In this document: positions 6,126-64,000 of the stretch, one piece after another
Position numbering within the stretch: position 1 is the stretch's first letter
Layout of the letters: each line of letters starts with the position of its first letter
From: Simkaniaceae bacterium
GTDB lineage: Bacteria > Chlamydiota > Chlamydiia > Chlamydiales > Simkaniaceae
Length of the DNA stretch: 64,000 nucleotides
Direction of reading: 5' to 3'
Assembly: GCA_018399075.1 (NCBI GenBank)
Contig: CP073763.1
Span: forward strand, 186,001 to 250,000
Translations under genes and position numbers: made by a program
The notes under the pieces: generated by a model
Seen by the model: only the letters and a program-made list of their open reading frames with translations
What the model was told of the DNA's origin: nothing
The model's database searches: none

Positions 6126-7003
6126 ATCTCCTCCCTTTTGTCATGGTTATTATCATGGTTTTAAGTCTATTTTCCCTTTCTCAATTTGAAGGTGCCATAG
6201 CACAGAAAAAAGAAAACCAAATTTACCTTGCCTATTTTAGAGGGCTAAGGGAAACCCGAAATGAAAAAGAAAAAATTGCTTATGAAAGGACCCTTGTAAA
6301 AAAAGAGGGGGACCAAAAAAAATCCAATGAAAAATTAACCTCTCAACCCTCTCAGAACTACTTTCGCGAAAAACGAGTAGGTTGGGAAAAAGGAAAATTA
6401 AACCTCTCCTCATTGCTAAAGGAGCCTTATAAATACCCTGCTCTAGAGACTATTGTCATAGAGTATGTCAAGGATCTTTACAGCCATGCAGACTTTTTTC
6501 CTAAAAATGACAAGCATACTAAAGCGCTGATCAAAGCCCTCATCAAACAGTATAAAAAAGTAGATCCTTTGACTCCCTTCCATGAACTAACATTTAGTGA
6601 TTCAAACCTTCAAGATATCTTCTATAAAATGGTCAGAGGAACCCATACCTATGATCTTGAGATGAAAATAGGCTACCCCCCCTTTGGGGAGATGTTTACT
6701 TTTGAAAAGAGTGATCGCCCTCCTATGAACTATCACTATGCAAATCTTTCTTTCCTCTCTATTGTTTTTGGAGAAAAAATAACGAAGGATTTTGTCGAGC
6801 TAGAAAAAAAAGAACTCATTAGTGCGAAGAAAAAATGTCTTTCTCCGATTAAAAAACCAGAATTCGAAAGTTTATTGAGAAATCAAATGGTTGGCGAAAA
6901 AAACACTGTCTTAGAGCTCTTTGATTTTACCTATGAAGCCTCTAGCCAAAATCCTGCAAAGTACCTTGATACAAAAACACAGATTACAGTGAAAGTGCAG
7001 TAG
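6122..7003 (+). CDS. GspK-like pseudopilin
   Basis: A 293-residue protein starting with the N-terminal hydrophobic helix LLPFVMVIIMVLSLFSLSQF and then a large hydrophilic, Lys-rich domain. It lacks Glu at +5, as GspK proteins characteristically do, and is larger than the other pseudopilins, also as in GspK. It starts by ATGA overlap with the GspJ-like gene. In type II secretion, GspI, GspJ and GspK form the pseudopilus tip complex. The gene order I-like, J-like, K-like is the basis for the assignment. Sequence similarity alone would not settle it. The 3' end overlaps the convergent histidine kinase gene by 20 bases. Confidence 0.6.
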   Translation: MNLLPFVMVIIMVLSLFSLSQFEGAIAQKKENQIYLAYFRGLRETRNEKEKIAYERTLVKKEGDQKKSNEKLTSQPSQNYFREKRVGWEKGKLNLSSLLKEPYKYPALETIVIEYVKDLYSHADFFPKNDKHTKALIKALIKQYKKVDPLTPFHELTFSDSNLQDIFYKMVRGTHTYDLEMKIGYPPFGEMFTFEKSDRPPMNYHYANLSFLSIVFGEKITKDFVELEKKELISAKKKCLSPIKKPEFESLLRNQMVGEKNTVLELFDFTYEASSQNPAKYLDTKTQITVKVQ

Positions 7004-10218: not shown

Positions 10219-11484
10219 TTAAACTTTCCGAGCATGAAGCTCAAGCTGATCTAATGCAAAGGTTTCCTCTCTTTTAGACTTAAGAAATTCAAGATCTTTC
10301 TGCAAGCCTTCAAGAAGTTTCGCATCTTTCACCTGTTTCATTTCTTGCGCTACAGCTAAAATCGAATTGCTGTACCCTTCTCGATCTCTTTTTTCTAAAG
10401 AAACTAGCGCTCTAAAAACACTTACCTTAGCCAAAAGGTGGTGTTTTTTTTCAGATTCTTCTGCATGTGAAAGTTCTTGCTCTAATGTCGATGCCATACG
10501 GACAAAGTTTTTTTCATCATGATTTCTTTGATAATAGATCATCACAGAAAGCCTCCCTGAAGCACGCACTAAAGGCTCATCTATTCGACCTAGAGCATCC
10601 TCCGCTTTTTTCATCACTTCAGGAGCTCGATCAAGCTGATGTCTAGCTAAATGAAGATACTCTTTAAAGCGCTCAAATGGCCTTTCTTCCGCTGCTATTC
10701 TTTTCAATGAACTATCACAGTCAAGTAATGAAAAGACGCCAGAAGAACAGTCCGCTCTGTCACCTGACTTAGGACTATTTATCATTAATCGATTGCCTCG
10801 CACTTCCATGTGGTAGACTTCTTTAAAAATGGGCATACAGTTGATTGCAAAGGTGCAATTAGCAAAGAGAAGATTGATATAGAGCTTTGAAAAATCGTTC
10901 ATAGCCACTCTTCTGTCAGCACATAGCTGTGCTAAACGGGGAAGCTCTTTTTCAAGATCTTTAAACTTTCTTTCATTTTTTAATTTATAAAGATGATCAA
11001 TAAGTGCTTTTGCCTCAGAATCTGTTATGATCGGAATGTTAAAAGATCCACTGAAGCCTGATCCGCTGACTTTATTCGGAATGTTAAAAGATCCACTGAA
11101 GCCTGATCCGCTGACTTTATAGTGATATCCATCTGTTTCTATGGAAAAGTTCTTTGATAAAATAGGGATAAGCTTTTTACCTTCTTCATGATTTGCTTTG
11201 GAAAGATCTGAAAAAAGGTTGAAGAGATCACTTATTGATACTGGACATTTCGATCCTGAAAAATAGCCGCGCAAAGTATCCATCCACCCTTTTGCTACTT
11301 GTGCTTGAGCATGAATTTGACTAAGCTGCATGATAATTTCACTAGCGCGATCAAAGTTCTTTTGTTTGATCGATGTTTTCGCTTCTTCAACAAGTCCTTT
11401 GACTTGCGTTTCTGTTAGTTCCTCTGAAACAAGAGTTTCAGTTTGTACTGAGGTATCGCCTCCGACTGCTGAAATTTCGCTCAT
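10219..11484 (-). CDS. Unknown protein with internal 15-residue duplication
   Basis: A 421-residue protein with no signal peptide or membrane helix. The N-terminal 35 residues are Thr/Ser/Glu-rich and look disordered, and the rest is helical and charged, with TPR-like spacing of aromatic and alanine residues. Around residues 122-151 a 15-residue unit containing SGSGFSGSFNIP is repeated exactly in tandem. The start is supported by AGAGGAAA about 6 bases upstream. I do not recognise the family. A disordered N-terminus on a solitary helical protein could fit a secreted effector, but nothing here proves it. Confidence 0.75.
   Translation of the reverse strand: MSEISAVGGDTSVQTETLVSEELTETQVKGLVEEAKTSIKQKNFDRASEIIMQLSQIHAQAQVAKGWMDTLRGYFSGSKCPVSISDLFNLFSDLSKANHEEGKKLIPILSKNFSIETDGYHYKVSGSGFSGSFNIPNKVSGSGFSGSFNIPIITDSEAKALIDHLYKLKNERKFKDLEKELPRLAQLCADRRVAMNDFSKLYINLLFANCTFAINCMPIFKEVYHMEVRGNRLMINSPKSGDRADCSSGVFSLLDCDSSLKRIAAEERPFERFKEYLHLARHQLDRAPEVMKKAEDALGRIDEPLVRASGRLSVMIYYQRNHDEKNFVRMASTLEQELSHAEESEKKHHLLAKVSVFRALVSLEKRDREGYSNSILAVAQEMKQVKDAKLLEGLQKDLEFLKSKREETFALDQLELHARKV
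11031..11120. repeat. Perfect 45-bp tandem duplication
   Basis: Two identical 45-base units (11031-11075 and 11076-11120) in direct tandem inside the unknown gene. The length is a multiple of three, so the reading frame is kept and 15 residues are duplicated. Perfect identity at third codon positions implies a very recent event. Confidence 0.95.
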
Positions 11485-49511: not shown

Positions 49512-52500
49512 ATGAAGACGGTTTCCTCCTCTTCCCATACGAGCAAGCGACTAAGAAATTTATTAGTCGCTTTGCTCCCACTTATTTGTGGCAAACTATC
49601 AGCAGAGGAAACTTTCCACACCTTAATTGCGCAGCAAGTGGCTTACCAAAACCAGGAGATCCTCCCCCAAATTGAAGAAACACAATTCTCCTTAGAACTC
49701 ACCATTCCTTCCCTAGCAACAAGTCTTGATTATGACTTAATTCCCCCTCCATCCTTTACCCTTGATCCGATTACTCCTCACCTTCTAGAAGAAGAGTACA
49801 TGACTCAAAAGAGATCACCGTTTAGAGCTAAAAAAACAATTAACTTTAGTAAAGAAATTGCCCGAGACGAAAAAGAGGAGCTAGCCCCTTTACCTTTTAT
49901 TACTGAGAAAAATGGAGATCCTTTAATCGTCGATCCAAATCTCGAGGAAAAAAAAGAAAAAAAACATGACTTTTTATCAGATGAACTCCCTTTAAATATT
50001 GAAGGTCGCTCTTATGATAGATCAGCTCCTTATGCATTTAAGCAATCCAGAAAAGATTCTTCGTCTCTTATCAATCGCGATTTTTCTCATAAAAAATCGG
50101 AAGCACACATTGGCTCATCATTAAAAGAACTTAAAACATCTCACCCCACTCAATCGTTTGTTTCCCTGGAAAAGAGAAATGACTATACCCCTATTCCAAT
50201 GAGTGTTGAGGTTCACAAACAACATTTTGATACTGATAACTTTTTTTTCTCCTTCGAAGATTCCTTCCCTTACACACCTCCCTATTCTCTAGACAATACG
50301 TTTGTTTTTACCGAAAAACTTTCCAGGGACTACTCACCTCCTGAAAAGGAGAATCTATCTGGAAACTGTTATTTTGCAGAAAGCTATTTTAAATCCTTTC
50401 AATGGACGGATGTTTCAAAAGTTAGTGAACAAAAAGCCCAAGCTCCACTCCATCCTTCTCTTGAAGAAATGAATGGTTATTTAGCAATCAATGAAATGAA
50501 CGTTAGTTTAGAGATTTTTTCAGATAACTCGCAATCTTTGGGATTTGATGACATTCCCCACTCGATTGATTTTCCTTATCAGTCGCATAAAATCGGGAAA
50601 AAGGTGATTGAAAATTCTCCTTTAGATTTGAAAAATTTTGAAGGGACTTCTTATCTCTATGTTAAATCCTATGTACCCCTTGAACCCCACTTCCACTACT
50701 ATCCTACTAGAGAAAAAGCCACCCCTCTTCCTTCTAGATATTCCTTATCGGAAGGACCAACTTTGGCTATGGAACTCGAACAGGAAGTGATCTCTTTCAC
50801 TCTGACCCCTCAATTTGATCTATACTGCTTTGAGGACTCACTACCCCTCCCTAAAAAAGCCCAAGAGTTTCAAGAAAGCGTCTTAGCTGTTATGCACCCC
50901 TATCTCTATATGGAAGCTTATGAAAGTTCAGAAAAAAATGAACCTACCCCAAAACCTGAGAAGCAGGAAGCTCTTGCATTCAATGAAACAATCGAAGACT
51001 TAAACCTCAACCCTAACATTGCTTCTTCCGCACCCCTTACAATTGAGAAGAAAAAAGATGGTCCTGTAGACATCATTTCTCATTCTATTGAGTTCCCTCA
51101 TGGAAGCGCCTCTTCTTCTATGAAATTCTCTTTAAAGGAGGATCTCTACCTAAATTCAGCAACTGAAGAAATTGAGATAGCTTCTAAGCTTTCCCCCTCA
51201 CATGAAGAGGCCCTTTCTCCAATTTTTGATTCTAAACTTGATTTAGAAATTTCCACACAAAAAGAGCTTCAAGCCCTTGCATTTGCAAATGAAGCTGAAT
51301 CATTTGATCCTACCATCAAGCACCCCTCTTTTCCTAAACATCACAAAAAGGATCTTTCATCACAGCTAAAAATCAAAAATTCTTTCAAGGGTGACGGAAA
51401 AGAAGTGACTGAAGACTTTGCTACGCAAAATCATTACTCTCCTTCTATACAAAAAATACAAAAGTCATTCTCAAAAACTCTTCCAAATTTTTCTCTTCCA
51501 AAATCAGAAATTCCCTCTCCATCTTTCAAGGGTGATGAAAACATTGCAGTCGCAATGAGGGGTTCTGAAATCGATTATGAAAAATTTGCAAATATGGAGG
51601 CGGGAAAATCAAATCTGAATGAACTTTCTCTTCCTTATGTTAGAAAAAAAGAGATCACTCCGATGAAGGGGGGGACGAAACCAAATAAGGTCGCTGAAGA
51701 TATTCCTGGTATTGAGTCTATAGCGCCATTGGTTGAAAGGATGGATTCCTATTCTAATGAAATGGCCGCTCTTGCTGCCCCTTCAAGTGAAAACAACTTA
51801 ACTGTAGAAAGTACCCATCCTCTTCATAGCCCTTTGCGTCCAGCTTATTATCCTCCAGAAGTTCCTGGACTAGAGATTGCTGCCAACACTCCTTCAATGA
51901 GAGAAAAACATCTCGAGTATGTGAAAAAAAAGACAGCCCCCTCTGCTGTCACTCCCGATGAATTAAAACTCCCCTTCGTTGCAGGAAAAAGGATCATTCC
52001 GAATAAGCCTTTAATGACACCTAAAAGGGCCTTTGAAGACCTTCCAGAAGCAGATAAAGTGATTGGACTCGCAACGCGAGAAGAAAACTTTCCTAATACT
52101 CGTGAAATCCTTGAAAGACACCCATTCCCTCTCAGAATCAAATCTGAGCTAACCATTTCGGAAGGGGAAGCTCCCCCCTTAGAAACGGAAATGATCCGCT
52201 CACAATCAAAAGAAATCCTCGACGATTATATTGAGGAAAACCGCCTTTCAGCTGGGTTAATAGCTCTTGCAAAACCTGAATTAGAAGGGCCTCCCTCAGA
52301 GTCTGAGACTAGAAGTCTTAATCAGTCAAACCGCTTTACACGAGCCTTTCTTACAGAAATCCCTCCTCCATCAAACTTAGAAACTGTCTCCTATAATAAT
52401 GAGTTCAATACCGATGTTCATTATTCGAAGAGAGAAGATGGTAAAGGCTATCTATTTTCTATAAAGATGAAGCCCGGCGAGAAGCTCCACTTTGCCTCTC

Positions 52501-53417
52501 CAAACCAACATTTTATTTTTGTGATAGATGGATCTAGTAGTATTAAGAAACACCGCTTTGGGGTCTTTAAAGAAGGTGTTGGACGTGCACTTTCTTACCT
52601 GGGAGAAGGAGATTCCTTTAATATCGTCGTTGCTGACGCAGAATTGACTCCTTTCAGCAAAACACCGACTTCTTGGAGTGAAGAGTCTTCAGCTAGAGCA
52701 AAACGGTTTTTAATCGAGCGGAATTACCGTGGATTCTTTATTAATTATAATGCTTTTGATCTCTTATCCAATGTTTCAAATTACTTTTCTCCTGATAAGG
52801 AGAATATCGTTGTCTTGATTACAGATGGTCACTCTTTTAAATCTATTAATGACCATAAAGAAGACTTCAAAGAGCTTGTTACTGAGAGCAAAGGAAAATT
52901 CTCTGTCTTCACTGCAACTGCAAGTCAAGGAAATAACCTTTCAATGCTTGATCTTTTGAGCACCTTTAATAACGGGGAGCTCATGTACTCAAAGACAAAT
53001 GCTTCTTTTTCACGAAGGCTTTCTGTCCTTGTTAAACATATTGAGTCGCTTGTTGCCAAAGATATCCATGTGAATGTGACGAGTATTAAACAAGAAACGG
53101 GAATTGAATTTTATCCTAATGAGTCGACCCTTCCTTCTCTTTATGCTGATCGCCCCTATACTGTTTATGGTTCTATCAATGAGCTTAAAGACTTTGATCT
53201 TATCCTCCAAGGGCGGTGTGGGGAGCAGTGGATCAATATTAAACAATCGATCTCCTTTAAGCATGCCCAGAAAGCAACCCATTCTATTAAGAAAGGAATA
53301 GCTCTTCAAAAGGCCTATGTCTGCTATGACTACTTCTTGAAAAATGATGATCCCTTCTTCTTAAGGGAAGCTCAAATCATCTTAGAGCCACATAATGTTC
53401 CTTCTGCAGTACGATGA
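49512..53417 (+). CDS. Giant secreted protein with C-terminal VWA domain
   Basis: A 1301-residue protein. The N-terminus has a hydrophobic segment (LLVALLPLICGKLSA near residues 18-32), suggesting export. About 950 residues follow that are Ser/Pro/Glu/Lys-rich and look disordered, with weak internal repeats. A von Willebrand factor A domain spans about 1000-1170: the MIDAS sequence is FVIDGSSSIKK, with NYNAFDLL and VVLITDGHSF further on. VWA domains bind proteins through a metal ion. Partner of the upstream TPR protein by operon. ATGA overlap with rsmD. Confidence 0.8.
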   Translation: MKTVSSSSHTSKRLRNLLVALLPLICGKLSAEETFHTLIAQQVAYQNQEILPQIEETQFSLELTIPSLATSLDYDLIPPPSFTLDPITPHLLEEEYMTQKRSPFRAKKTINFSKEIARDEKEELAPLPFITEKNGDPLIVDPNLEEKKEKKHDFLSDELPLNIEGRSYDRSAPYAFKQSRKDSSSLINRDFSHKKSEAHIGSSLKELKTSHPTQSFVSLEKRNDYTPIPMSVEVHKQHFDTDNFFFSFEDSFPYTPPYSLDNTFVFTEKLSRDYSPPEKENLSGNCYFAESYFKSFQWTDVSKVSEQKAQAPLHPSLEEMNGYLAINEMNVSLEIFSDNSQSLGFDDIPHSIDFPYQSHKIGKKVIENSPLDLKNFEGTSYLYVKSYVPLEPHFHYYPTREKATPLPSRYSLSEGPTLAMELEQEVISFTLTPQFDLYCFEDSLPLPKKAQEFQESVLAVMHPYLYMEAYESSEKNEPTPKPEKQEALAFNETIEDLNLNPNIASSAPLTIEKKKDGPVDIISHSIEFPHGSASSSMKFSLKEDLYLNSATEEIEIASKLSPSHEEALSPIFDSKLDLEISTQKELQALAFANEAESFDPTIKHPSFPKHHKKDLSSQLKIKNSFKGDGKEVTEDFATQNHYSPSIQKIQKSFSKTLPNFSLPKSEIPSPSFKGDENIAVAMRGSEIDYEKFANMEAGKSNLNELSLPYVRKKEITPMKGGTKPNKVAEDIPGIESIAPLVERMDSYSNEMAALAAPSSENNLTVESTHPLHSPLRPAYYPPEVPGLEIAANTPSMREKHLEYVKKKTAPSAVTPDELKLPFVAGKRIIPNKPLMTPKRAFEDLPEADKVIGLATREENFPNTREILERHPFPLRIKSELTISEGEAPPLETEMIRSQSKEILDDYIEENRLSAGLIALAKPELEGPPSESETRSLNQSNRFTRAFLTEIPPPSNLETVSYNNEFNTDVHYSKREDGKGYLFSIKMKPGEKLHFASPNQHFIFVIDGSSSIKKHRFGVFKEGVGRALSYLGEGDSFNIVVADAELTPFSKTPTSWSEESSARAKRFLIERNYRGFFINYNAFDLLSNVSNYFSPDKENIVVLITDGHSFKSINDHKEDFKELVTESKGKFSVFTATASQGNNLSMLDLLSTFNNGELMYSKTNASFSRRLSVLVKHIESLVAKDIHVNVTSIKQETGIEFYPNESTLPSLYADRPYTVYGSINELKDFDLILQGRCGEQWINIKQSISFKHAQKATHSIKKGIALQKAYVCYDYFLKNDDPFFLREAQIILEPHNVPSAVR
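51618..52088 (+). repeat. Degenerate repeat pair in the VWA protein
   Basis: Two segments about 113 residues apart (51618-51749 and 51957-52088) share the pattern (N/D)EL-x-LP(Y/F)V-x-x-K-x-I-x-P, then P-x4-EDIP or EDLP, then I-x2-L-x2-R. Both are about 44 residues long. Identity is partial, so the duplication is old. Confidence 0.5.
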
Positions 53418-53965
53418 GAATTACTGGCGGTTTTCTAAAAAATCAATCTCTTAAAACTCCAAAAGGGGATAAAACCCGACCTACCTCTGAAAAGCTACGA
53501 CAATCGGTTTTTAACATTGCCCAAGCATATGTCGACAATTGCGCCTTTCTTGATCTCTTTGCTGGATCAGGGGCCATGGGAATCGAAGCTTTGAGTCGTG
53601 GAGCTAAAGAAGCAACATTTATTGAAAAAAACCGAGCAGCTCTTAAAGTCCTTAGAGAAAACTTGCAGGATCATGATCTCTTACCACTCTCAACTCTTCT
53701 TGCTGGGGATGTTTTAACGCTCTTAAAGAAGTTGAAGGGGAATGCCTTTGATCTTATCTATGTTGATCCTCCTTATGAAAAAGGGCTCCAAGAGAAAACT
53801 TTGGTTTTAATCGATCATCTTCATCTTCTCCATATCGGAGGCCTTCTATTTATTGAAGAGAGCTCTCAAAACGAATTGAAGATCCCTCCTCTTACAAACA
53901 TTGAATTAAAAAAGAAAAGGAAGGTGGGTAGCACCTCCCTTTATGAATTTATCGGGAAACTTTAA
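53414..53965 (+). CDS. rsmD: 16S rRNA (guanine966-N2)-methyltransferase RsmD
   Basis: Methylates G966 of 16S rRNA. The 183 residues show the N-terminal MRITGGFLKNQSLKTPKGDKTRPTS-like RNA-binding region, the SAM motif LDLFAGSGAMGIEALSRGA and the catalytic (D/N)PPY as VDPPYEKG. Starts by ATGA overlap with the VWA gene, so it lies in the TPR-VWA operon. Converges with the MORN-repeat gene, overlapping 17 bases. Confidence 0.95.
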   Translation: MRITGGFLKNQSLKTPKGDKTRPTSEKLRQSVFNIAQAYVDNCAFLDLFAGSGAMGIEALSRGAKEATFIEKNRAALKVLRENLQDHDLLPLSTLLAGDVLTLLKKLKGNAFDLIYVDPPYEKGLQEKTLVLIDHLHLLHIGGLLFIEESSQNELKIPPLTNIELKKKRKVGSTSLYEFIGKL

Positions 53966-56561
53966 CCCCATTTTCATAACGCGTTTCTATGACTTTGCCA
54001 TCTTGATCGTAGCTTTTTTTCACTCCATTAAGTTTACCATTAACATAGTGCTGTTCTAGACGAGGCTTACCGGTATCATAGTATTTCATGAACTTTCCAT
54101 GCTGGTTTCCATCTTTGTATTCGGCTTGGAAAATTAAGTTTCCTGATTCGTTCCAATGTTCAGCTTTTCCTTCAAGCTTTCCATTTTTATAAGGATAAAC
54201 ACTATTTAAGCGACCATCTTCAAAGAAGGTTTTCTCTTTTCCTTCTTTCTGGTCTTTAACAAATCCAACTTCTTTGTAAATCTGACCTGACGGATAGTAT
54301 TGATAGGAATCTCCTTCCCTTAAATCATTTTTAAATATCAACCGAATGGCTGTCCGACCATTTCTATGGAAAAGCTCAGCTTCTCCATCTTTCTTTCCAT
54401 CATTATATGTGGTGATACTAATCTTATTACCACTTGGATCATATTCGGTCACAATGCCATGAATCTTATTGCTTTTATAAGATCCCTCGATGGCCTTAAC
54501 TTTTTCCCCATCAGTTACATCAAGGGGATAGTAGATATAGTGAGGGCCTTCTCTTTTATTATTCTTATAGTGATAAACGATTTCTCGCCCTTCTTGATCT
54601 TTTTCAAAATGGCGCCCTTCAAGTTTTCCATTCACATATTTTGATTCTTCAAGGAGGTTCCCTTCTTGATCCCAAAGTCCTTTTAAGCCATTAAGTTGAC
54701 CATTGTCATAACCAATGAGCGTCTTTACAACTCCATTTGGATAATAGGATTTTTGTTCACCATGAAGCTCTCCTTTTTCATTATGGAAGTAGTGGTTAGA
54801 GACTATCCCTTTCTTCCCATCTGATGGTGGATAAAACTCTTTCTGCGCACCTACAGGCTTTCCTTCTTTCGCATTTCTGATAAAAGCTTCACTTCCATCT
54901 TCAAAATAACCTAAGGCCTCTCCTTCGACAAGATCGTTTTTAAAAGTTTCACTTAGCTTCACTTGTCCATTTTGATAATACTGTTCATGCTTTCCTTCTC
55001 TTTTCCCATCAAGAAAGTGGAAGACCTCAAATTTATTCCCTGAATCGTAATAAGCTGTGTGGGTTCCAATAGGGTTATCTTGATCAAAGGCCCCTTCAAA
55101 GAGGAGGGTTCCTTCTTGATTCCAGGATCTAAACGTTCCATCTTTTTTGCCCATTTCGTAGCGAGCTTCAACAGTGTGCATCCCATCTTCATACCAATCG
55201 TTCTGGTCACCATTAAACAGAGAATCTTTGAAATTTCTCTTTGTTTTTATCTGACCATTTGGATACCAATCGGTAAATTCTCCATTGCGATTTCCTTCTT
55301 TGAAACTCCCTTCGAAAGCAAGTTTTCCATCTTCATACCACTCTTGGAAAACCCCATTTTTTAACTGGTTTTTATAGCTTCCCTTAAGCTTAACCTGGCC
55401 TGATGGAAAATATTGGGTATAGTCTCCCTCAAGTTCACCGTTCACATAATAACCATCAGTTTGAAGTTTCCCATCAGAAAACCATGATTGAAATTTTCCA
55501 TGGAACTGGTCTTCTTCATTTCTAGAATATTCAGCAATCTTTTGACCATTTTCATCAAACTCTCGAATCGGTTCTTTTAAAGCCCCTTTTTTATCATAAG
55601 TTGCAAGGAAAGCCATGGTTCCATTTTCATGCTTTCTCCAATGCTTTCCAATCATCTTGCCCTGAATGTATTCTCCCTCGCCAACAACCCGTCCATTAGA
55701 GTCATACCAGCGTTCTGTTCCATCTTTCTTTCCGTTCACATAGCGGACATGATAGCTTTGGCGTTCATTAGGGTGATACTGGATATGATCTCCATGAAGA
55801 ATTCCTTGATTATAGTCTTGTACTTCAGTGATCGTATGATTTTCATCATAGTGAATGATACCCGGTAAATTTTTCGCTGAATGGAGTTTTCCTTTTAGAT
55901 AATAACATTCTGTTTTCTCATTCCCATTCTCATACCACTCAATCATTTTACCATGGATCTCTCCCTCAACATAAGGAACGAGAACTTCTCTTTCGCCACT
56001 AGAGTAATAACGGATATAGTCTCCCTCTTGCTTTCCCTCTTCGTATTGGCCTTCAGCTAGAGTTTGACCATTCTCATGGTAAGAATAAATCTTCCCTTCA
56101 GGCTTTCCTTGATTAAATGTGGTTACATGATGGAGCTGTCCTTTAGGATAAAAGATTTTCATCGGACCATGAAGAAGCCCATGATCAAAATAACCTACTC
56201 TTTCAACTTCTCCTGACTCCCGAAAATGTACACTGACTCCATGAGGGACAATGGTTGACTTCCAAGCTTCATAACCTGCAGATTTTTCATCAACAGTAAT
56301 GAGATCCGTCTCTTCTTTTGGACGCCCATTTTCAAAAAACTGAATCCGCTTTACAGGTTCTTCAACTCCTGCATCATTTTCATTATAAAAGACAACAAGC
56401 TGAGGGGTTCCACTTTGAAACTGCTCTACAATAGAGGGTCGCCACTCTGGCATTCTCACTTGAAGTTCTGTTGCTACTGGAACAACTTTATTTTCATTAT
56501 TTTCTTGAGAAAAGAGAAGAGTTGGCAAAAGTGCCAAAGCAAAAAGTAGTCTTTTAGTCAT
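53949..56561 (-). CDS. Secreted protein of about 30 MORN-like repeats
   Basis: About 870 residues from the ATG at 56561 (GGTGAT upstream; another ATG lies 4 codons earlier). Signal peptide MTKRLLFALALLPTLLFSQ. From residue 100 to the end, about 30 tandem units of roughly 23-26 residues follow the pattern (Y/F)-x-x-G-x-x-x-G-x5-(Y/W)-(Y/F)-x-x-G-x, of the MORN_2/YwqK type, such as YVNGKLEGR and FKEGNRNGEFTDWYPNGQIK. These form a long open beta array. Export and size suggest a surface or secreted adhesin-like or structural protein. Two palindromes lie upstream. Confidence 0.85.
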   Translation of the reverse strand: MTKRLLFALALLPTLLFSQENNENKVVPVATELQVRMPEWRPSIVEQFQSGTPQLVVFYNENDAGVEEPVKRIQFFENGRPKEETDLITVDEKSAGYEAWKSTIVPHGVSVHFRESGEVERVGYFDHGLLHGPMKIFYPKGQLHHVTTFNQGKPEGKIYSYHENGQTLAEGQYEEGKQEGDYIRYYSSGEREVLVPYVEGEIHGKMIEWYENGNEKTECYYLKGKLHSAKNLPGIIHYDENHTITEVQDYNQGILHGDHIQYHPNERQSYHVRYVNGKKDGTERWYDSNGRVVGEGEYIQGKMIGKHWRKHENGTMAFLATYDKKGALKEPIREFDENGQKIAEYSRNEEDQFHGKFQSWFSDGKLQTDGYYVNGELEGDYTQYFPSGQVKLKGSYKNQLKNGVFQEWYEDGKLAFEGSFKEGNRNGEFTDWYPNGQIKTKRNFKDSLFNGDQNDWYEDGMHTVEARYEMGKKDGTFRSWNQEGTLLFEGAFDQDNPIGTHTAYYDSGNKFEVFHFLDGKREGKHEQYYQNGQVKLSETFKNDLVEGEALGYFEDGSEAFIRNAKEGKPVGAQKEFYPPSDGKKGIVSNHYFHNEKGELHGEQKSYYPNGVVKTLIGYDNGQLNGLKGLWDQEGNLLEESKYVNGKLEGRHFEKDQEGREIVYHYKNNKREGPHYIYYPLDVTDGEKVKAIEGSYKSNKIHGIVTEYDPSGNKISITTYNDGKKDGEAELFHRNGRTAIRLIFKNDLREGDSYQYYPSGQIYKEVGFVKDQKEGKEKTFFEDGRLNSVYPYKNGKLEGKAEHWNESGNLIFQAEYKDGNQHGKFMKYYDTGKPRLEQHYVNGKLNGVKKSYDQDGKVIETRYENGVKVSR

Positions 56562-56610
56562 GATGATCACCATAAAAATTTTTTTCCAGTATAACCGAAA
56601 TCACCATTTA

Positions 56611-56696: not shown

Positions 56697-56721
56697 GACG
56701 CCAGGGAGAAACCCCGGCGCC
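56697..56721 (-). terminator. Rho-independent terminator of the small membrane protein gene
   Basis: Minus-strand stem GGCGCCGGGG / CCCTGGCGTC (10 pairs, two G-U) with loop TTTCT, followed by TTTATT. Placed 9 bases after the stop codon at 56730. Confidence 0.8.
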
Positions 56722-56729
56722 AAAGAATT

Positions 56730-57104
56730 TTAATTAAAGGCGAACCAAGTAAGAGCTATGCCCCATGCGATACCCACGAGAGAAAAGAAGATATAAGAGC
56801 TCGTATAGGTCTTAATCATCTTATCAAGCATTTTAGGGAAAAACATTATGAGAAGTCCACGAATGAGGAAAAGCCATCCTAGAAGGGTTACAAGAACTTC
56901 AATACTCATATACCAGTAGTTAAAGCTATTGATAAAAATCACTCCTAAAAGGACGTTAAAAACGCCAATAAAATAGATTAGTGCCGGTGTTTTTTTAAGT
57001 GAATCAATCACTTTTTTCATATTTTCTTTATAGAGCAGTGTCCACAGACTTGTAATGATTAAAAGGGGGCCAAAAATACTTGCTAGCGCCGTTGAAGATG
57101 CCAT
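56730..57104 (-). CDS. Small four-helix membrane protein
   Basis: A 124-residue protein with four hydrophobic helices (for example ALIYFIGVFNVLLGVIFI and EVLVTLLGWLFLIRGLLIMFF). AAGGAG-like bases precede the ATG (AGGAGATTTT). No motif I can name. It sits alone, ended by a terminator, downstream of the gsp operon on the same strand. Confidence 0.75.
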   Translation of the reverse strand: MASSTALASIFGPLLIITSLWTLLYKENMKKVIDSLKKTPALIYFIGVFNVLLGVIFINSFNYWYMSIEVLVTLLGWLFLIRGLLIMFFPKMLDKMIKTYTSSYIFFSLVGIAWGIALTWFAFN

Positions 57105-57133: not shown

Positions 57134-57565
57134 TTAATATAATGACAATCTAGCGTCAATAGTTTTCCTTTGATTTCCTAAATAAATGTTTATTACTGCA
57201 TCTTTTTCAATCCACCCGCTTGATGTAATTAAAATTGTTACCTTTTTTTCTCCTTCTAATTGCAAGTAGGGGATTTTTATTGTGGCTTTGGGTGTCACCC
57301 TAGGGGATAGCGGCTCATCGGTTTTTCTAGTGCAGATGAGGTTATTTCCTTTTTGCTCAATATGAAACTCAATATCGGCTGTGGCTGTTTTTGCTAGCCT
57401 TTTAGAAAGTGTGATCTCACGCTTAAGTTTTGCATAGCTATGATTAAACCGATAATGATCAAGCATTGGTTTTGCTCGAATCAATACAACACTTCCTATA
57501 AGAGCAATTAAGCCTATAGATATAAAGAGTTCTATGAGTGTGAACGGTCGTCGTCTTCTTCCCAA
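57134..57565 (-). CDS. Pseudopilin GspH-like
   Basis: A pseudopilin of about 143 residues. The best start is a TTG at 57565 with AGGA seven bases upstream, inside the end of gspG; it gives leader MGRRRRP and FTLIELFISIGLIALIGSV with Glu at +5. A longer frame begins 11 codons earlier. The body contains ITLSKRLAKTATADIEF, like the region after the helix in GspH. Last gene of the gsp operon. Pro rather than Gly before the cleavage point. Confidence 0.75.
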   Translation of the reverse strand: MGRRRRPFTLIELFISIGLIALIGSVVLIRAKPMLDHYRFNHSYAKLKREITLSKRLAKTATADIEFHIEQKGNNLICTRKTDEPLSPRVTPKATIKIPYLQLEGEKKVTILITSSGWIEKDAVINIYLGNQRKTIDARLSLY

Positions 57566-57948
57566 GGATATTCCTGTTTCATCCCTTTCTTTTCGCAATA
57601 AGCATCATACTTTTCAGAGTGAAAACGAAGATCCCCTTTTTCTAAACTAAATTGATACTCATTTCCCCACCCATCTCTCATAAGATCTTTGGTGTTTTTT
57701 ACAAGACCTGATTCTCTTAGCAGTTTTGAAACAGTCACTGGTAAATTACCATCATCAGTTAAAGTTTTGTTTTGAGCTATTTCAAGTTGGACAATTTCAT
57801 AGAGTTTTCTTGTCCCTTCTTTTGTTTTAAATGCTTTTCCATTGTCGAGGCTACCACGCATATTATAACCAATTACACTTCCAATAATTCCGATGATAAA
57901 AATTACGATCATAATTTCTAAGAGAGTCATTGCATATTTTTTTTTCAT
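57532..57948 (-). CDS. gspG: Major pseudopilin GspG
   Basis: A 138-residue major pseudopilin of type II secretion. Leader MKKKYA, then MTLLEIMIVIFIIGIIGSVIGY with Glu at +5, and the C-terminal calcium-site region LMRDGWGNEYQF characteristic of GspG. The -1 residue is Ala instead of the usual Gly. The acidic C-terminal tail (PWEEDDD) is longer than usual. Ten bases downstream of gspF. Confidence 0.9.
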   Translation of the reverse strand: MKKKYAMTLLEIMIVIFIIGIIGSVIGYNMRGSLDNGKAFKTKEGTRKLYEIVQLEIAQNKTLTDDGNLPVTVSKLLRESGLVKNTKDLMRDGWGNEYQFSLEKGDLRFHSEKYDAYCEKKGMKQEYPWEEDDDRSHS

Positions 57949-57958
57949 TATACGTTCC

Positions 57959-59143
57959 TTAGTTGAGGATTGAACTTACGTCAGTTAATGGAAGAAGAAC
58001 AGCGAGCAGAATAATTGCGACAACGACTCCAAGAAAAAGGAGCATTACCGGCTGGAGGAGAGAGGTAAGGCGAGTTAAACTTCTCTCAATATCTTCTTCA
58101 TAGATGTTTGATAGGTGCGCCATCATTTCAGAAACCCTTCCAGACTCTTCGGCAATAGAAAGCATCCGAATAACAAGCGTTGGGATGAGGGGAGATTTCT
58201 GGAGCTCTTCAGAAAGGCGTTTTCCTTCAAGGACCTTAACTTCTGCATCAGAAATAATCGCTTCAAAGCTGGCATGCTTCATCACCTTTTTCGAAAGGCT
58301 TAGACAGTCCATCATTGAAACCCCCCCGTTAAAAAGGATAGAAAAAACGCGGCAAAAACGGGCCATGATGGTCTCGATGAAAAGTCGCTTTACAATTGGA
58401 ATATGGAGGAAAGCCTCCTTCATTTTTTCTTTCCCTTGAGGGTGGCGGAGGAAAAACATGAAACTTAAAACAACCCCTGTAAGAGTGGAAAAGATGAAAA
58501 GGGCGTGGTTATTTAAAAAGTGGCTGAGTGAAAGAACCGCTTGTGTCATTGGATGGAGTGTTCGTTCTTCAAAAAGCTCGCTCATCGAAGGAATAAGAAA
58601 AAACAAAAGAACAGAAATGACTGTGAGACAAAAAACGGCTAAAAATGCAGGGTATATCATTGCTGAGCTAAGTTTTTTTCGAAGGGCTTGTTGTTGTCCT
58701 ATGAGTTTTTCGAGCTCAGCAAAGCTTTGCTGAAGAGATCCAGACTCCTCACCAGCCTTTAACATCGATAAATAGACAGGATCAAAAACTTTTGGATAAT
58801 CACGAAGCGCATCTGAAAAGTATCGCCCCTCTTTTACTTGATCACAAAGGTCCAAAAAAATGGGATGTAGCTTGGTTTTTCGATACTTTTCTTCTAAAGT
58901 TATAAGGCTATCGTAAAGGGGAAGTCCTGCCTTTAGGAGGACATGGAGATCTCTTGTAAAACCAATGAGAAGAGACGGCGAAATCCTAAACTCTTCCCCT
59001 TTTTTAGTATAGGAAACAAGCTTTGTAACAAGAATTTCATCTTTCCTAAGGCGTTCTTTAGCAAGCTCGATTGAATCGGCGTTAATCATCCCCATTTTTC
59101 GCCGCCCTTCTTTTGAAAGTGCTGTATACTGATATAAAGCCAT
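57959..59143 (-). CDS. gspF: Type II secretion inner-membrane platform protein GspF
   Basis: A 394-residue three-helix protein of the type II secretion platform. It has two homologous cytoplasmic domains: RDLHVLLKAGLPLYDSL with AGEESGSLQQSF, and FNGGVSMMDCLSLSKK with AEESGRVSEMM. Helices near residues 170, 220 and 375. Family signatures are full. It couples the ATPase GspE to the pseudopilus. Starts 14 bases after gspE. Confidence 0.94.
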   Translation of the reverse strand: MALYQYTALSKEGRRKMGMINADSIELAKERLRKDEILVTKLVSYTKKGEEFRISPSLLIGFTRDLHVLLKAGLPLYDSLITLEEKYRKTKLHPIFLDLCDQVKEGRYFSDALRDYPKVFDPVYLSMLKAGEESGSLQQSFAELEKLIGQQQALRKKLSSAMIYPAFLAVFCLTVISVLLFFLIPSMSELFEERTLHPMTQAVLSLSHFLNNHALFIFSTLTGVVLSFMFFLRHPQGKEKMKEAFLHIPIVKRLFIETIMARFCRVFSILFNGGVSMMDCLSLSKKVMKHASFEAIISDAEVKVLEGKRLSEELQKSPLIPTLVIRMLSIAEESGRVSEMMAHLSNIYEEDIERSLTRLTSLLQPVMLLFLGVVVAIILLAVLLPLTDVSSILN

Positions 59144-59157
59144 GAACCTATCCCTAA

Positions 59158-60720
59158 TTATTGATAAAGTTCGAGTTGTCTTGTTACACGAAGAACCTCA
59201 GCCGTGGTCGTGACTCCATTCTTTACTAAGAGACCCCCTTCGCTTCTTAATGTTGCCATCCCATGATCTGCAGCTGTCTTCTGTAGAGCGCTAGCATCTG
59301 CACTTAAAAGAAGTTGTTTTTTTATGGCTCCTGATACGGGCATCAGCTCATAAATCCCTACTCTTCCTCGGTACCCTGATCCAAAGCATTCTTTGCATCC
59401 TTTACCACGAAAAAGCTTCTCCTCATCAATTTGAAGATCTTTTAGTTCTTGAGATGAGGGTTTATAACTTTCTTTGCAGCTATCGCAAATTCTTCTCACA
59501 AGCCTTTGTGCAAGGACAGCTAAAACTGAAGAGGAAAGAAGATAAGGTTCTATCCCCATATCAACCAGTCTTGTTAAGGCAGAAGGAGCATCATTGGTAT
59601 GAAGGGTTGATAGGACAAGGTGACCTGTTAAAGAGGATTGAATGGCAATTTCTGCCGTTTCTTTATCACGAATTTCCCCAATCATAATAACATCAGGGTC
59701 TTGGCGAAGGATATGACGCAATCCTTTTGCAAAGGTCAGTTCAATCTTTGGGTTTACCCCAATCTGAGCGATTCCTGGAAGTTTATACTCAACAGGATCT
59801 TCAATTGTCATCACATTGACTTCTTGTGAATGGATTTCACTGACAGCACTATAAAGAGTTGTTGTCTTTCCACTTCCAGTCGGACCGGTGACTAAAACAA
59901 TTCCTTGGTTTTGATGGATATATTTTTGAAAGTTTTGAAGAGTTCTTTTCCCCATTCCAATTTTATCAAGCCCTAAAACAACATTACTTTTATCAAGGAT
60001 CCTTAAAACAATCCTCTCTCCATAAACAACAGGGACAGTACTTGCCCTAAAATCAATTTGCCTCCCTCCCATCGAGAGTTTAATCCTTCCATCTTGAGGT
60101 AAGCGATGTTCAGCAATATCCATCTTTGCCATGACCTTTACTCGCGTCAAAAGTTGCTTAGAAAGCTCGGGAGGGGGAGAGTGACGGAATTGAAGAACTC
60201 CATCTATTCTATAGCGGATGGCCATCTCACTTTCTAAGGGTTCGAAATGGATATCAGAAGCTCCTTGTTGAATGGCTTCAATAAGGACCATATTCAAAAG
60301 ACGAACAACGGGAGAATCATATTGTTTGTCGAGAAGATCATACTCATCTTCATTTTTCTTTAAAAAGTTTTTGCCTCCCCCCTTTTTTAACCCTTCAATA
60401 AATTGGGAGGCTTCCTTTTCTCCTTGGTGATAACACTTTTCAATGGCTTCCTCAAGTTGCGGTTTTGGGCAAAAAACTTCTTCAATATCAGATCCTGTAA
60501 TACACCGAATTTCTTCGAGCGTTTCTAGATCATAAGGATGGGCTATTGCTACAAGGAGTTTTCCCTCTTTTTCATCAATAGGGAGAGCGAGCTTTTCTTT
60601 TACGAACGGATAAGGAAGTTTATGGGTTTTTTTTACAACAAAGGGAAAGGCACTTAGATCATAAATCGATTCAAGTCCAAAACGCTCTGCAAAAAGATAA
60701 TCATCACCTTGGTCAGCCAT
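59158..60720 (-). CDS. gspE: Type II secretion ATPase GspE
   Basis: About 520 residues from the ATG at 60720, chosen for the GGAAA upstream; TTG and ATG starts lie 2-4 codons earlier. The hexameric cytoplasmic motor. Walker A TGPTGSGKTTTLYS, Walker B VIMIGEIRDKETAE, His box LSTLHTNDAPSA, and the zinc motif CDSC plus CKEC. The N-terminal domain is the MshEN/N1E type (DLSAFPFVVKK). Overlaps the end of gspD by 8 bases. Confidence 0.95.
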   Translation of the reverse strand: MADQGDDYLFAERFGLESIYDLSAFPFVVKKTHKLPYPFVKEKLALPIDEKEGKLLVAIAHPYDLETLEEIRCITGSDIEEVFCPKPQLEEAIEKCYHQGEKEASQFIEGLKKGGGKNFLKKNEDEYDLLDKQYDSPVVRLLNMVLIEAIQQGASDIHFEPLESEMAIRYRIDGVLQFRHSPPPELSKQLLTRVKVMAKMDIAEHRLPQDGRIKLSMGGRQIDFRASTVPVVYGERIVLRILDKSNVVLGLDKIGMGKRTLQNFQKYIHQNQGIVLVTGPTGSGKTTTLYSAVSEIHSQEVNVMTIEDPVEYKLPGIAQIGVNPKIELTFAKGLRHILRQDPDVIMIGEIRDKETAEIAIQSSLTGHLVLSTLHTNDAPSALTRLVDMGIEPYLLSSSVLAVLAQRLVRRICDSCKESYKPSSQELKDLQIDEEKLFRGKGCKECFGSGYRGRVGIYELMPVSGAIKKQLLLSADASALQKTAADHGMATLRSEGGLLVKNGVTTTAEVLRVTRQLELYQ

Positions 60721-63058
60721 CAACATTTCCAAAAAGGAGTTTTAAACTATTATCAAAAAGGCGTTTTTTATGACGCTTTTTCGCTTCTTGAACCCTTTCA
60801 AGAAACTCTGGGAGATCTCCCGGTCTTTTCATAAGTTGTTCATGTCTGAGTTTCTCAAACTCACTTTTTACATCGAAAATAATATGGGGCGTAATAAAGA
60901 AAAACATCTCTGTCTTTTCGTCGGTCATTTTTGAATCGCCAAAAAACTTTCCAATGCCAGGAAGTTCCCCTAAAAAGGGAAGCTTGCTATTCGTGTCTTC
61001 TGCCGTTTTTTCCCTTAAGCCCCCTAAAATAACGGTCTCGCCATCCACAACACGGACATGATTTTCAACATGGCGACGACTGACAGAAGGACGATCATTT
61101 TGAACATTTTTCTTAATTGTATCAAAGGTAACATTCGTTTCTAATGTCACAAAATGCTTGTCATCATCGGGATGTTCAGGATCATGAATTGTGGGGGTGA
61201 TGACAATCGTTGTTCCATATTGTGCCCTGGAAAAGGACTGTTGAAAAGCAATCCCTTTATTGGTGTCAATAGGTGCAGCTCCATTATCAATGGAGATCTC
61301 TTCAACAAGAGAGATTTGCGCTGGTGTTTGATTCAAAGTTGTCACTGATGGAGCTGCATTAATGCGGATATCTTCTTGAGACATTAAAAAGTTATAAGCG
61401 ATATCAAATGCAGGCCAAAAATCATTCGGTTTTTTTCTGAAAATGAAAAAATCTACAATTCCTTTGCGAGGAACCCCTGGGCCTGTTTCGTACTTTAATC
61501 CTGTTTCATGAGAGTTTGTCGCAGCCGATCCCAACCTAAGAAGATTCAGGCCAAAGTTATTATGATTTTTTATTCTCTTTTCAAAAAGAAGGACTTCGAT
61601 TTGAACCATTTTCTTAGGAACATCCAGTTTACGGATAAGCTCTTTGATTTTATCAAGGGTGTCCCGCCGGACAACCATCATGATCGCTCCCGTTTTTGGA
61701 TAGGGAATAAAATTCGTAGTATAGGATTTTTCTTTTTGAGCTTCGATCGTTGCAGCTACCGCTGTTGGAGGATGAACAACGGTTGAATAAGGCGGAGGGC
61801 CATAAGATGGTGGTGCAAGCTGCTGCCCAGGTGGGGGATCTAAAGGACGGGGTGGAGGCAAGGGGTCTAGCTCGGGAGTTGGCTCTTGTCCTTCAACGCC
61901 AGAATAAATCAATGAGGCATAAACTTTTTCTAAAACCTCTGCAATATCGATAGGATCACTATGGCGGCAATTGTACCAATAAACAGTCATTGCCATGGGG
62001 TCTTCGATCTGCCCTTCGGTCTCCTTAATTAAGGATTCCGCCTTTTCGACCAAATCTTTAGGGCCAATGAGGACGAGAGATCCTTCGTTTGCCAGTGGAA
62101 GAATAATAAGGTCATCACCCTCACCTTTGGTCAAACCAATCCTAGGCCTTTTAGTTAAGTCCCCAAAATAAGCGGTCAAAATCTTTTCCATTTCAGATGG
62201 TTTGAGACGGCTCAAAGGGAGAACGCGGGTGAGCTTTTCATTTTCTTTTTCCCAAACTGCTTCATAAAGGGCCAGGAGCTTCTCAATCTCTTCCTTCGAA
62301 GAGATAATCGCAATTTTATATCCCACTTGATAGACAAAAGTCATTTTAGGATCACGGAAACGTTCAAAAAATTGAGAAACCCCTTTGATCCTTTCTGGAG
62401 GGGGAGAAAAAACATAGGCTATTCTCGATCTCGGAGGGATGCGCATCAAGTCAATAGGGTTATTAAGTACCTGATCGACAGCAACTAGATCTTGCTTCAA
62501 GATGTAAAGCTGCCTTGTATATGAATTCAGTTGCTTCACTCCAATCCCATTATGGGAAAGGATAATTTCAAGGAGATCACTCCAACACTCCCTTGGGATG
62601 GGAATACCTGAGTGCATATGAAGTTTCATGGAGAGAATTTCAGGTGGGATAATATAGAGATAGTCATGAGATCCATACTCCATGATGAGTTGGGTCATGC
62701 TGGTTTCTTCTTGATCCCATAAAGCATACCCTTCATCATCCTTCTTAGACTCATTAACCGCTAGGTCATGCCACTCTTTTTCAAGGTCGGTAATCTCTAC
62801 TCGGATTTGATTCACATCGATTAAAAGCTGGTGATAATCTTCTTCATTTGCCCCATCTTTATGATACTCGTTTACGAGATCATATTTTTCTTCCATTGAC
62901 AGCCGAAGACTCCTTAACTGAGCATTAACTTCATTCAAATAGCTACGGAGCTCTTTCTCCTCTTTCTGAAGGAGAAGGGCATCGCGCTTTTCTTCAATGG
63001 TTTGCCCATGTAAAGCTGTTATACAAAAGAAGAATATGAGCCCTAATTTAATCTTCAC
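60713..63058 (-). CDS. gspD: Type II secretion secretin GspD
   Basis: The 781-residue outer-membrane pore. Signal peptide MKIKLGLIFFFCITALHGQ. Residues 20-115 are charged and coiled-coil-like, which is not usual for GspD. N-domains follow (LPLSRLKPSEMEKILTAYFG), then a Pro-rich linker near residues 385-435, then the secretin domain ending in GETVILGGLREKTAED and FFFITPHII. The pore-forming segments are intact. Overlaps the upstream gene by 11 bases. Confidence 0.94.
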   Translation of the reverse strand: MKIKLGLIFFFCITALHGQTIEEKRDALLLQKEEKELRSYLNEVNAQLRSLRLSMEEKYDLVNEYHKDGANEEDYHQLLIDVNQIRVEITDLEKEWHDLAVNESKKDDEGYALWDQEETSMTQLIMEYGSHDYLYIIPPEILSMKLHMHSGIPIPRECWSDLLEIILSHNGIGVKQLNSYTRQLYILKQDLVAVDQVLNNPIDLMRIPPRSRIAYVFSPPPERIKGVSQFFERFRDPKMTFVYQVGYKIAIISSKEEIEKLLALYEAVWEKENEKLTRVLPLSRLKPSEMEKILTAYFGDLTKRPRIGLTKGEGDDLIILPLANEGSLVLIGPKDLVEKAESLIKETEGQIEDPMAMTVYWYNCRHSDPIDIAEVLEKVYASLIYSGVEGQEPTPELDPLPPPRPLDPPPGQQLAPPSYGPPPYSTVVHPPTAVAATIEAQKEKSYTTNFIPYPKTGAIMMVVRRDTLDKIKELIRKLDVPKKMVQIEVLLFEKRIKNHNNFGLNLLRLGSAATNSHETGLKYETGPGVPRKGIVDFFIFRKKPNDFWPAFDIAYNFLMSQEDIRINAAPSVTTLNQTPAQISLVEEISIDNGAAPIDTNKGIAFQQSFSRAQYGTTIVITPTIHDPEHPDDDKHFVTLETNVTFDTIKKNVQNDRPSVSRRHVENHVRVVDGETVILGGLREKTAEDTNSKLPFLGELPGIGKFFGDSKMTDEKTEMFFFITPHIIFDVKSEFEKLRHEQLMKRPGDLPEFLERVQEAKKRHKKRLFDNSLKLLFGNVDG

Positions 63059-64000
63059 TAAAAATCTCGTAATCCTCTATCGGTTCAAGTTTTTGACTGG
63101 GATTGTTTCGCATCGGTCCCGTTGAATTGTCTTCTGAAGGTAGTGGGCCAATTTTAGTTGAAAAGGTATTTTTTGTGGGAGGAGAATGTTCTCCACCCTT
63201 AATTTGAGTCATCGGAAGCCTTACAAAGTGTTGTTCTGTTCGCATCGGATTAAAGAGCGTACCACAAAAAACTTCTTTCCCGTCAGATTTTTCAAGGCCA
63301 TCAAAAACAAAAAGATCTCCCATAATATCTAACTTTAAAAGAGCTTCAACTTCATAGTAATTCTTAATTGTATGCCAGCCTGTTGTTGTGTGAACAAGCC
63401 AATCTCCCTCTTTTAGAATCGTTGCACGATTATCAATCCTACATGAAACGCGAGATGATGTTCGTCTTCGTAGTCTCGTGAAAATATCTTCAGCGCGAAG
63501 AGAAATTAATGAAATGCGTTCCTTACTGAAGGTTAAGAGGACTGATTCCATTCCCTCTTTATCCCAAAGCATCAACTCTACCTTATAAGGAGAAATGGCA
63601 ACCACTTTTCCCATAGGATAACCTTTTGTTTTCAGCGAAGGAGTCCATTCTCCATCCTTCCAAATAAAGGTGTCTCCTTCGTTGATAAAGAGGATCTTAC
63701 TTTCTTTCCCTGTTTGTATTTCAAGGCGTTCCCTCCCTTTATAGGCCTGATATTCATCTCCTCCATACCTTTCATAAAGCTTATCGGGCCCCCACCATTT
63801 CCCATTTTTTAAGGCCTCACTCCCTAACTTAAGGAGAGGATCGGTAACCTCCTCAACCCTCTTGGTCTCCCACTTTTGCTTTACTTTAAACTCTCTCATT
63901 TCATTGAGAAGCTTTTCTCCCTCTTCGTTAATGAGTTCAATTCCCATCTCAAGCCAGTCGTCTCCATTTTCATCAATCTTTGGCTTAATCCATAAAGGGG
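63048..64000 (-). CDS. Unknown gene upstream of gspD, partial
   Basis: At least 316 codons open to the window edge; the reading frame continues through 64000 without a stop, so the true start is outside and the Met at 63947 is internal. A soluble beta-rich protein (KILFINEGDTFIWKDGEWTP and VRLPMTQIKGGE) with a disordered C-terminus. No membrane helix is visible in the part seen. By position it matches the unknown protein before gspD in Chlamydia. A GspC-like or secretin-assembly role is possible but unproven. Confidence 0.7.
   Translation of the reverse strand, partial: PLWIKPKIDENGDDWLEMGIELINEEGEKLLNEMREFKVKQKWETKRVEEVTDPLLKLGSEALKNGKWWGPDKLYERYGGDEYQAYKGRERLEIQTGKESKILFINEGDTFIWKDGEWTPSLKTKGYPMGKVVAISPYKVELMLWDKEGMESVLLTFSKERISLISLRAEDIFTRLRRRTSSRVSCRIDNRATILKEGDWLVHTTTGWHTIKNYYEVEALLKLDIMGDLFVFDGLEKSDGKEVFCGTLFNPMRTEQHFVRLPMTQIKGGEHSPPTKNTFSTKIGPLPSEDNSTGPMRNNPSQKLEPIEDYEIFSED

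What the first reader, a model, noticed from the sequence alone, without database searches (positions are those of the whole stretch)
53949..56561. Secreted array of about 30 MORN-like repeats
Nearly the whole protein is a tandem array with a signal peptide, longer than the handful of copies usual for this repeat. Such an array would form a long open beta structure, fitting a surface fibre, adhesin or secreted scaffold. It is a possible client of the type II secretion system encoded next to it.
Basis: partly seen in the sequence, partly recalled or inferred. Interest (0 to 1): 0.55.

Follow-up and report, generated by a model that had tools for sequence, protein, structure and literature searches.

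The report
Fixed-length secreted MORN-repeat rod, Chlamydiota
This gene encodes a probably exported protein built almost wholly from 31 MORN-type beta-hairpin repeats; relatives of it occur across much of the chlamydial phylum with nearly the same number of repeats and usually sit next to the type II secretion genes, which suggests a rod of set length rather than a variable adhesin.

Summary
Window 53949-56561 (-) encodes 870 aa with a Sec-type signal peptide and 31 repeats of period 24 (MORN_2, PF07661, E 6e-59), plus two N-terminal hairpin pairs. AlphaFold2 predicts an unbroken hairpin array (mean pLDDT 91.8) that matches solved MORN structures (Z up to 14.7). New here: the array is a widespread chlamydial protein. 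A strong match occurs in 158 of 232 Chlamydiota genomes, but in 0 of 22 of the family I take to be Chlamydiaceae. Of 40 aligned orthologs, 37 keep the same repeats although repeats within the protein are only 22% identical on average. gspE lies upstream on the same strand within 10 kb in 51 of 59 genomes with both on one contig, yet a terminator separates the two units in the window. No lipobox, barrel or other anchor was seen. A fixed-length envelope rod is likelier than a copy-variable adhesin; whether it stays in the periplasm or leaves through the type II system cannot be decided here. Fold and family are known; fixed size, spread and linkage are the interesting part.

The parts
53949..56561 (-). 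870-aa MORN_2 repeat protein (ORF opens at 56573; either ATG possible)
56496..56561 (-). signal peptide, about residues 1-22 (cleavage site inferred)
   Evidence: hydrophobic core maximum 2.31, no Cys at 11-32; end placed by eye
56295..56441 (-). N-terminal residues 41-89: two hairpin pairs, preceded by the conserved LxxRxPxWRP stretch (residues 33-42)
   Evidence: strands; P38 and W40 invariant in 40 of 40
53967..56252 (-). 31 repeats of 24 aa (residues 104-865), 5-6 extra residues after repeats 6, 20 and 24
56697..56721 (-). intrinsic terminator between the 124-aa membrane protein gene and this gene
   Evidence: 10-bp stem, -20.3 kcal/mol, z -4.06
53916..53942 (-). terminator-like hairpin just past the stop codon
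   Evidence: pattern match; 6 found against a mean of 4.3 in shuffles of the region, so weak alone
56730..57104 (-). 124-aa membrane protein, sub-threshold DUF2065 match; found in 27 of 45 related loci
57134..63058 (-). type II secretion genes: pilin-like 57134-57598, gspG-like 57532-57948, gspF 57959-59143, gspE 59158-60732, secretin gspD 60713-63058

Best explanation
A Sec-exported, soluble rod of set length that serves as an architectural part of the chlamydial cell envelope. Shown or predicted from sequence: signal peptide, 31 repeats plus N-terminal hairpins in one continuous beta-sheet, no membrane anchor at either end after signal cleavage, the same repeats kept one by one across chlamydial families, and a deep gene-order tie to the T2SS genes. 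Inferred: after folding in the periplasm the rod (about 27 nm if the spacing of solved MORN1, 80 A for 9 repeats, holds) spans or lines the envelope and holds partners at its most conserved stretches (repeats 6-10, 22-24, 28-30); the T2SS is either its exporter or the machine it works beside.
For: MORN_2 in 40 of 40 orthologs. AF2 mean pLDDT 91.8 over 870 aa, hairpins throughout; VIA Z 14.7 (rmsd 6.3, 199 aligned) to TgMORN1; N-terminal piece alone pLDDT 96.3, Z 12.7 (rmsd 6.2, 185 aligned). Copy number: 37 of 40 with no array indel of 13 residues or more; two lost 24 residues, one lost 48. The cognate repeat is the best match in 934 of 1209 comparisons, chance 1 in 31. Divergence 41% identity, near gspF 47, gspG 46, rsmD 43. 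Linkage: 51 of 59 same-contig pairs, 24 of 28 loci with at least 6 kb upstream. Spacing from PMC7725318 (passage).
Against: No localisation data. Coordinates of the model were not available, so rod length is borrowed. The linkage could be plain slow gene shuffling: rsmD on the other side is also retained in 19 of 22 loci. Linkage is lost in some relatives, one of the same genus (G218, 94 kb away). About a third of the genomes lack a strong match (74 of 232), so it is not needed by all chlamydiae.
Confidence: 0.45

Rival explanations
1. It is a T2SS substrate: Sec-exported, folded in the periplasm and released through the secretin to the bacterial surface or inclusion lumen, where the array binds host or bacterial partners.
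For: Conserved same-strand position after gspDEFG; signal peptide without anchor. A Sec plus GspE route is published for CPAF in C. trachomatis (PMC4067387, passages).
Against: T2SS substrates carry no readable signal, so this is guilt by position; in the window a terminator separates it from the T2SS side; fixed size and housekeeping-like divergence are unusual for a host-facing protein.
Confidence: 0.32
2. It is a surface adhesin or fibre, like the MORN2 proteins proposed for Fusobacterium and the Leptospira LIC20035 adhesin.
For: Same repeat family; NCBIfam NF033566 hits at E 7e-46; Fusobacterium MORN2 proteins occur in outer membrane vesicles and near adhesin genes (PMC10434195, PMC7067209, passages).
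Against: 156.9 bits is far below the NF033566 cut-off of 250; PMC10434195 itself says that no experiment proves an adhesion role; no anchor seen; no copy-number variation.
Confidence: 0.12
3. It is a component of the T2SS machine itself.
For: Gene position.
Against: gspE is present in all 22 genomes of family f4 while a strong match to this protein is absent from all 22, so the system is kept without it.
Confidence: 0.06
4. Cytoplasmic YwqK-like antitoxin, as automated annotation often names MORN_2 proteins (recalled).
For: Family name only.
Against: Signal peptide in 39 of 40 orthologs by a hydropathy rule; no partner toxin was sought or seen among the neighbours.
Confidence: 0.03

Closest known systems
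Pfam PF07661 MORN_2 (MORN repeat variant)
   Same: repeat length, consensus, score well above the cut-off
   Different: about 31 repeats in one array, with the number fixed in nearly all relatives examined
MORN1 of Toxoplasma, Plasmodium and Trypanosoma (PDB 6t69, 6t4d, 6t4r)
   Same: fold: curved antiparallel hairpin array, protein made almost only of repeats
   Different: eukaryotic; 15 repeats of about 23 aa in TbMORN1; not an exported bacterial protein
Chlamydial MORN_2 protein of about 425-444 aa (own-genome copy L050, 426 aa; open frames of 428-444 codons in 18 of 18 genomes of genus g20)
   Same: MORN_2 repeats, N-terminal export signal
   Different: half the length; lipobox-like LVGC in the window genome; a separate ortholog group (39% identity of L050 to the two genus g20 members compared, against 21-26% local identity to this protein)
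NF033566 LIC20035 family adhesin (Leptospira)
   Same: MORN_2 repeat array
   Different: score below the family cut-off
pCOMP cluster 049 'MORN motif proteins' of Heinz et al. 2009 (PMC2811131)
   Same: chlamydial MORN proteins predicted as outer-membrane candidates, present in all chlamydiae they studied
   Different: members are not listed in the passages I saw; since it includes Chlamydiaceae it is probably the 428-aa group, not this protein (inference)

Membership tests
MORN_2 repeat proteins (PF07661) | score over the curated cut-off | tested here: met
   189.5 against 29.6 bits; 40 of 40 orthologs match at E 0.001 or better
MORN_2 repeat proteins (PF07661) | MORN hairpin fold | tested here: met
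   predicted model only: pLDDT 91.8, VIA Z 14.7 to 6t69, rmsd 6.3, 199 aligned; N-terminal part Z 12.7
LIC20035 family adhesin (NF033566) | score over the curated cut-off | tested here: not met
   156.9 against 250 bits
T2SS substrate | Sec or Tat signal peptide | tested here: met
   hydropathy rule only, 39 of 40
T2SS substrate | GspD/GspE-dependent crossing of the outer membrane | not testable with these tools
   needs a knock-down and localisation
Core T2SS component | present wherever the T2SS is | tested here: not met
   strong match absent from 22 of 22 f4 genomes that have gspE
Outer membrane lipoprotein | lipobox with Cys at the signal cleavage site | tested here: not met
   window protein has no Cys at residues 11-32; a Cys there is not conserved in the orthologs
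Autotransporter | C-terminal beta-barrel translocator | tested here: not met
   repeats run to residue 863-865 of 870 in model and sequence
Copy-variable repeat adhesin | repeat number differs between relatives | tested here: not met
   37 of 40 without an array indel of 13 or more residues
Rhs/YD-repeat proteins | closed beta-cocoon shell | tested here: inconclusive
   Foldseek E 2e-21 but TM 0.09 and rmsd 47; only the run of hairpins is shared

The most novel reading that the evidence does not exclude
The protein is a molecular ruler or strut of about 27 nm that sets a distance in the chlamydial envelope (for instance inner to outer membrane beside the T2SS), in bacteria that lack a conventional peptidoglycan wall (recalled); its repeats are addressed one by one, which is why their number hardly changes.
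Probability: 0.15. Interest if true: 0.75.

Novelty: new variant of a known kind. Interest (0 to 1): 0.42.

Why it matters
Repeat arrays usually change copy number fast (general knowledge). One that keeps 31 diverged repeats in the same order across families of obligate intracellular bacteria implies that total length, or each repeat surface, is under selection. Together with its position beside the type II secretion genes it is a concrete handle on what that system does in environmental chlamydiae and on how an envelope without a normal wall is braced.

Tried and rejected
Recent DNA duplication as the origin of the array: rejected, no tandem DNA repeat in the gene. Higher-order block duplication: mean repeat-to-repeat score shows no clear peak at lags 1-19. 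Operon with the T2SS: not supported in the window (terminator), though read-through is possible. The 425-444-aa protein of genus g20 as a shortened ortholog: rejected, the window genome has its own 426-aa copy, 39% identical to the two g20 members compared. Rhs/YD relationship from Foldseek: set aside (TM 0.09). A control for copy-number change in MORN_2 arrays of other phyla was not run, so 'unusual' rests on general knowledge. Absence of other families from the VIA lists was not used as evidence. Print searches for this protein: 'MORN'+'Chlamydia'+'repeat'+'secreted' (4 papers), 'MORN repeat'+'chlamydiae', 'MORN'+'Simkania', 'MORN repeat'+'type II secretion', 'MORN'+'Parachlamydia', 'MORN'+'chlamydial'+'outer membrane'. 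Of these I opened passages of PMC2811131, PMC13229535 and PMC1664576; the first two speak of chlamydial MORN proteins, not of this one by name; the others I saw only as listings and abstract starts. The library holds open-licence papers only.

Full report
What is there. The protein repeats with a period of exactly 24 residues and scores 189.5 bits to Pfam MORN_2 (cut-off 29.6). With the register set by hand on the conserved glycines I count 31 repeats, residues 104-865, with 5-6 extra residues after repeats 6, 20 and 24. The mean identity between repeats is 22% (highest 50%), and no tandem repeat is seen at DNA level: the array is old.

Structure. AlphaFold2 with 40 sequences gives mean pLDDT 91.8 (pTM 0.62) and hairpins from residue 41 to 863. 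The second look at PDB chains ranks Toxoplasma, Plasmodium and Trypanosoma MORN1 first (Z 14.7, rmsd 6.3, 199 aligned for 6t69). Residues 23-256 folded alone give pLDDT 96.3 and again MORN1 (Z 12.7, rmsd 6.2, 185 aligned), so the hairpins begin before the first regular repeat. For the whole model Foldseek lists Rhs/YD shells first by E-value, but with TM about 0.09 and rmsd 47, which I take as shared hairpins only. Coordinates of the model were not available to me, so length is borrowed: a solved MORN1(7-15) subunit of 9 repeats is about 80 A long (PMC7725318, passage), which would give about 27 nm for 31 repeats.

Export and anchoring. A hydrophobic core near the start is present in 39 of 40 orthologs, and no stretch after residue 40 reaches that hydropathy. 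The exception, L073, was read from a late start codon. There is one cysteine in the mature window protein, no conserved lipobox, and no domain after the last repeat. After signal cleavage the protein should be soluble (inference).

Spread. The window is in Chlamydiota: the phylum search and the record titles (Simkaniaceae, Rhabdochlamydiaceae, Neptunochlamydia and unplaced chlamydial MAGs; a few records carry other labels such as Verrucomicrobia). Of 232 genomes, 158 have a match at E 8.1e-34 or better, 68 only weaker ones (7.2e-21 or worse) and 6 none; no best match falls between (tallied). By family label: f1 (own) 25 of 27, f25 51 of 61, f28 27 of 32, f22 21 of 38, f4 0 of 22. Some absences must be gaps in draft genomes. 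gspE is found in 138 of 140 genomes at least 90% complete, including all 22 of f4.

Fixed size. In the alignment of 40 orthologs (39 loci plus the window; 6 of 45 loci dropped for lack of a long frame), 37 have no array insertion or deletion of 13 residues or more; two lost 24 residues (one repeat) and one lost 48 (two repeats), all within residues 414-467. The other notable length change is a loop at 581 (up to 12 residues). The cognate repeat is the best match in 934 of 1209 comparisons of window repeats with those of other species, against 1 in 31 by chance. Cognates were taken from the same alignment, which favours them somewhat, but cognate identity is 37-80% while non-cognate identity stays at 20-22%. 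Apart from the structural positions the most conserved are repeats 6-10, 22-24 and 28-30; the least are 11, 14, 17, 26 and 15, and the deletions fall in repeats 13-15. A stretch LxxRxPxWRP before the first hairpin has P38 and W40 invariant in 40 of 40.

Neighbourhood. In the window the order on the minus strand is secretin gspD, gspE, gspF, gspG, a pilin-like gene, a 124-aa membrane protein, then this gene; on its other side, on the plus strand, lie a TPR protein, a VWA protein and rsmD. Of 45 related loci, 28 hold at least 6 kb upstream and 24 of these have gspE there on the same strand; L054, L056, L068 and L092 do not; rsmD is downstream in 19 of 22 with at least 7 kb. Conditioning on one contig favours near pairs in fragmented assemblies, and genomes whose MORN match was not printed could not be counted. 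In ten distant loci with these genes the mean identity is gspE 65, gspD 50 (9 loci), gspF 47, gspG 46, rsmD 43, this protein 41 over its whole length, TPR 31, VWA 33 over a quarter of its length. Between the 124-aa gene and this gene is a 10-bp intrinsic terminator, -20.3 kcal/mol, z -4.06, so in the window it is probably its own transcription unit.

Paralogs. The window genome has further MORN_2 proteins of 426, 333 and 254 aa (L050, L052, L049). The first two begin with lipobox-like signals, the third has no visible signal (by eye). The 426-aa protein is 39% identical end to end to the two genus g20 proteins compared (L037, L040); open frames of 428-444 codons with such a match occur in 18 of 18 genomes of that genus.

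How it works. Shown: sequence, family, conservation, linkage. Predicted: fold. Inferred: export, extended shape in the cell, envelope role. I favour a set-length envelope scaffold (0.45) over a T2SS-exported product (0.32), because size and rate of change look like an architectural part; both are compatible with the data. In C. trachomatis a GspE mutant fails to secrete CPAF across the outer membrane (PMC4067387, passages), so the route exists in the phylum. A machine part is unlikely because f4 keeps gspE without it.

Known work. Heinz et al. 2009 (PMC2811131; passages) list a MORN cluster among predicted chlamydial outer membrane proteins; a 2026 paper on a Hydra symbiont counts 4 MORN proteins (PMC13229535, passage). 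Fusobacterium MORN2 proteins are proposed, not proven, adhesion factors (PMC7067209, PMC10434195; passages). Six searches of open papers turned up nothing on this protein in what I saw of their hits.

Noticed in passing
56730-57104 (-): 124-aa hydrophobic membrane protein with a sub-threshold DUF2065 match, found in 27 of 45 related loci near this gene.
   Followed up: partly
63048-63947 (-): 299-aa protein just upstream of gspD with no Pfam match, seen in the same place in many related loci; a candidate inner-membrane or GspC-like partner (guess).
   Followed up: no
3164-3691, 5538-6125, 6122-7003 (+): Pilin-like or companion genes far from the T2SS cluster; only the second has an N-methylation motif match and a weak DUF1494 match. 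Possible missing minor pseudopilins.
   Followed up: partly
49512-53417 (+): 1301-aa protein with a VWA domain only at 1002-1155; matches in distant loci cover a quarter of it while its place next to rsmD is kept.
   Followed up: no
11031-11120: Perfect 45-bp duplication inside ORF 10219-11484, giving a repeated 15-residue segment.
   Followed up: no
L065, L075, L085, L093 (kinase-like); L094, L096 (glycosyltransferase-like): Extra genes inserted between this gene and its usual neighbours in several relatives; the kinase and glycosyltransferase names are by eye.
   Followed up: no
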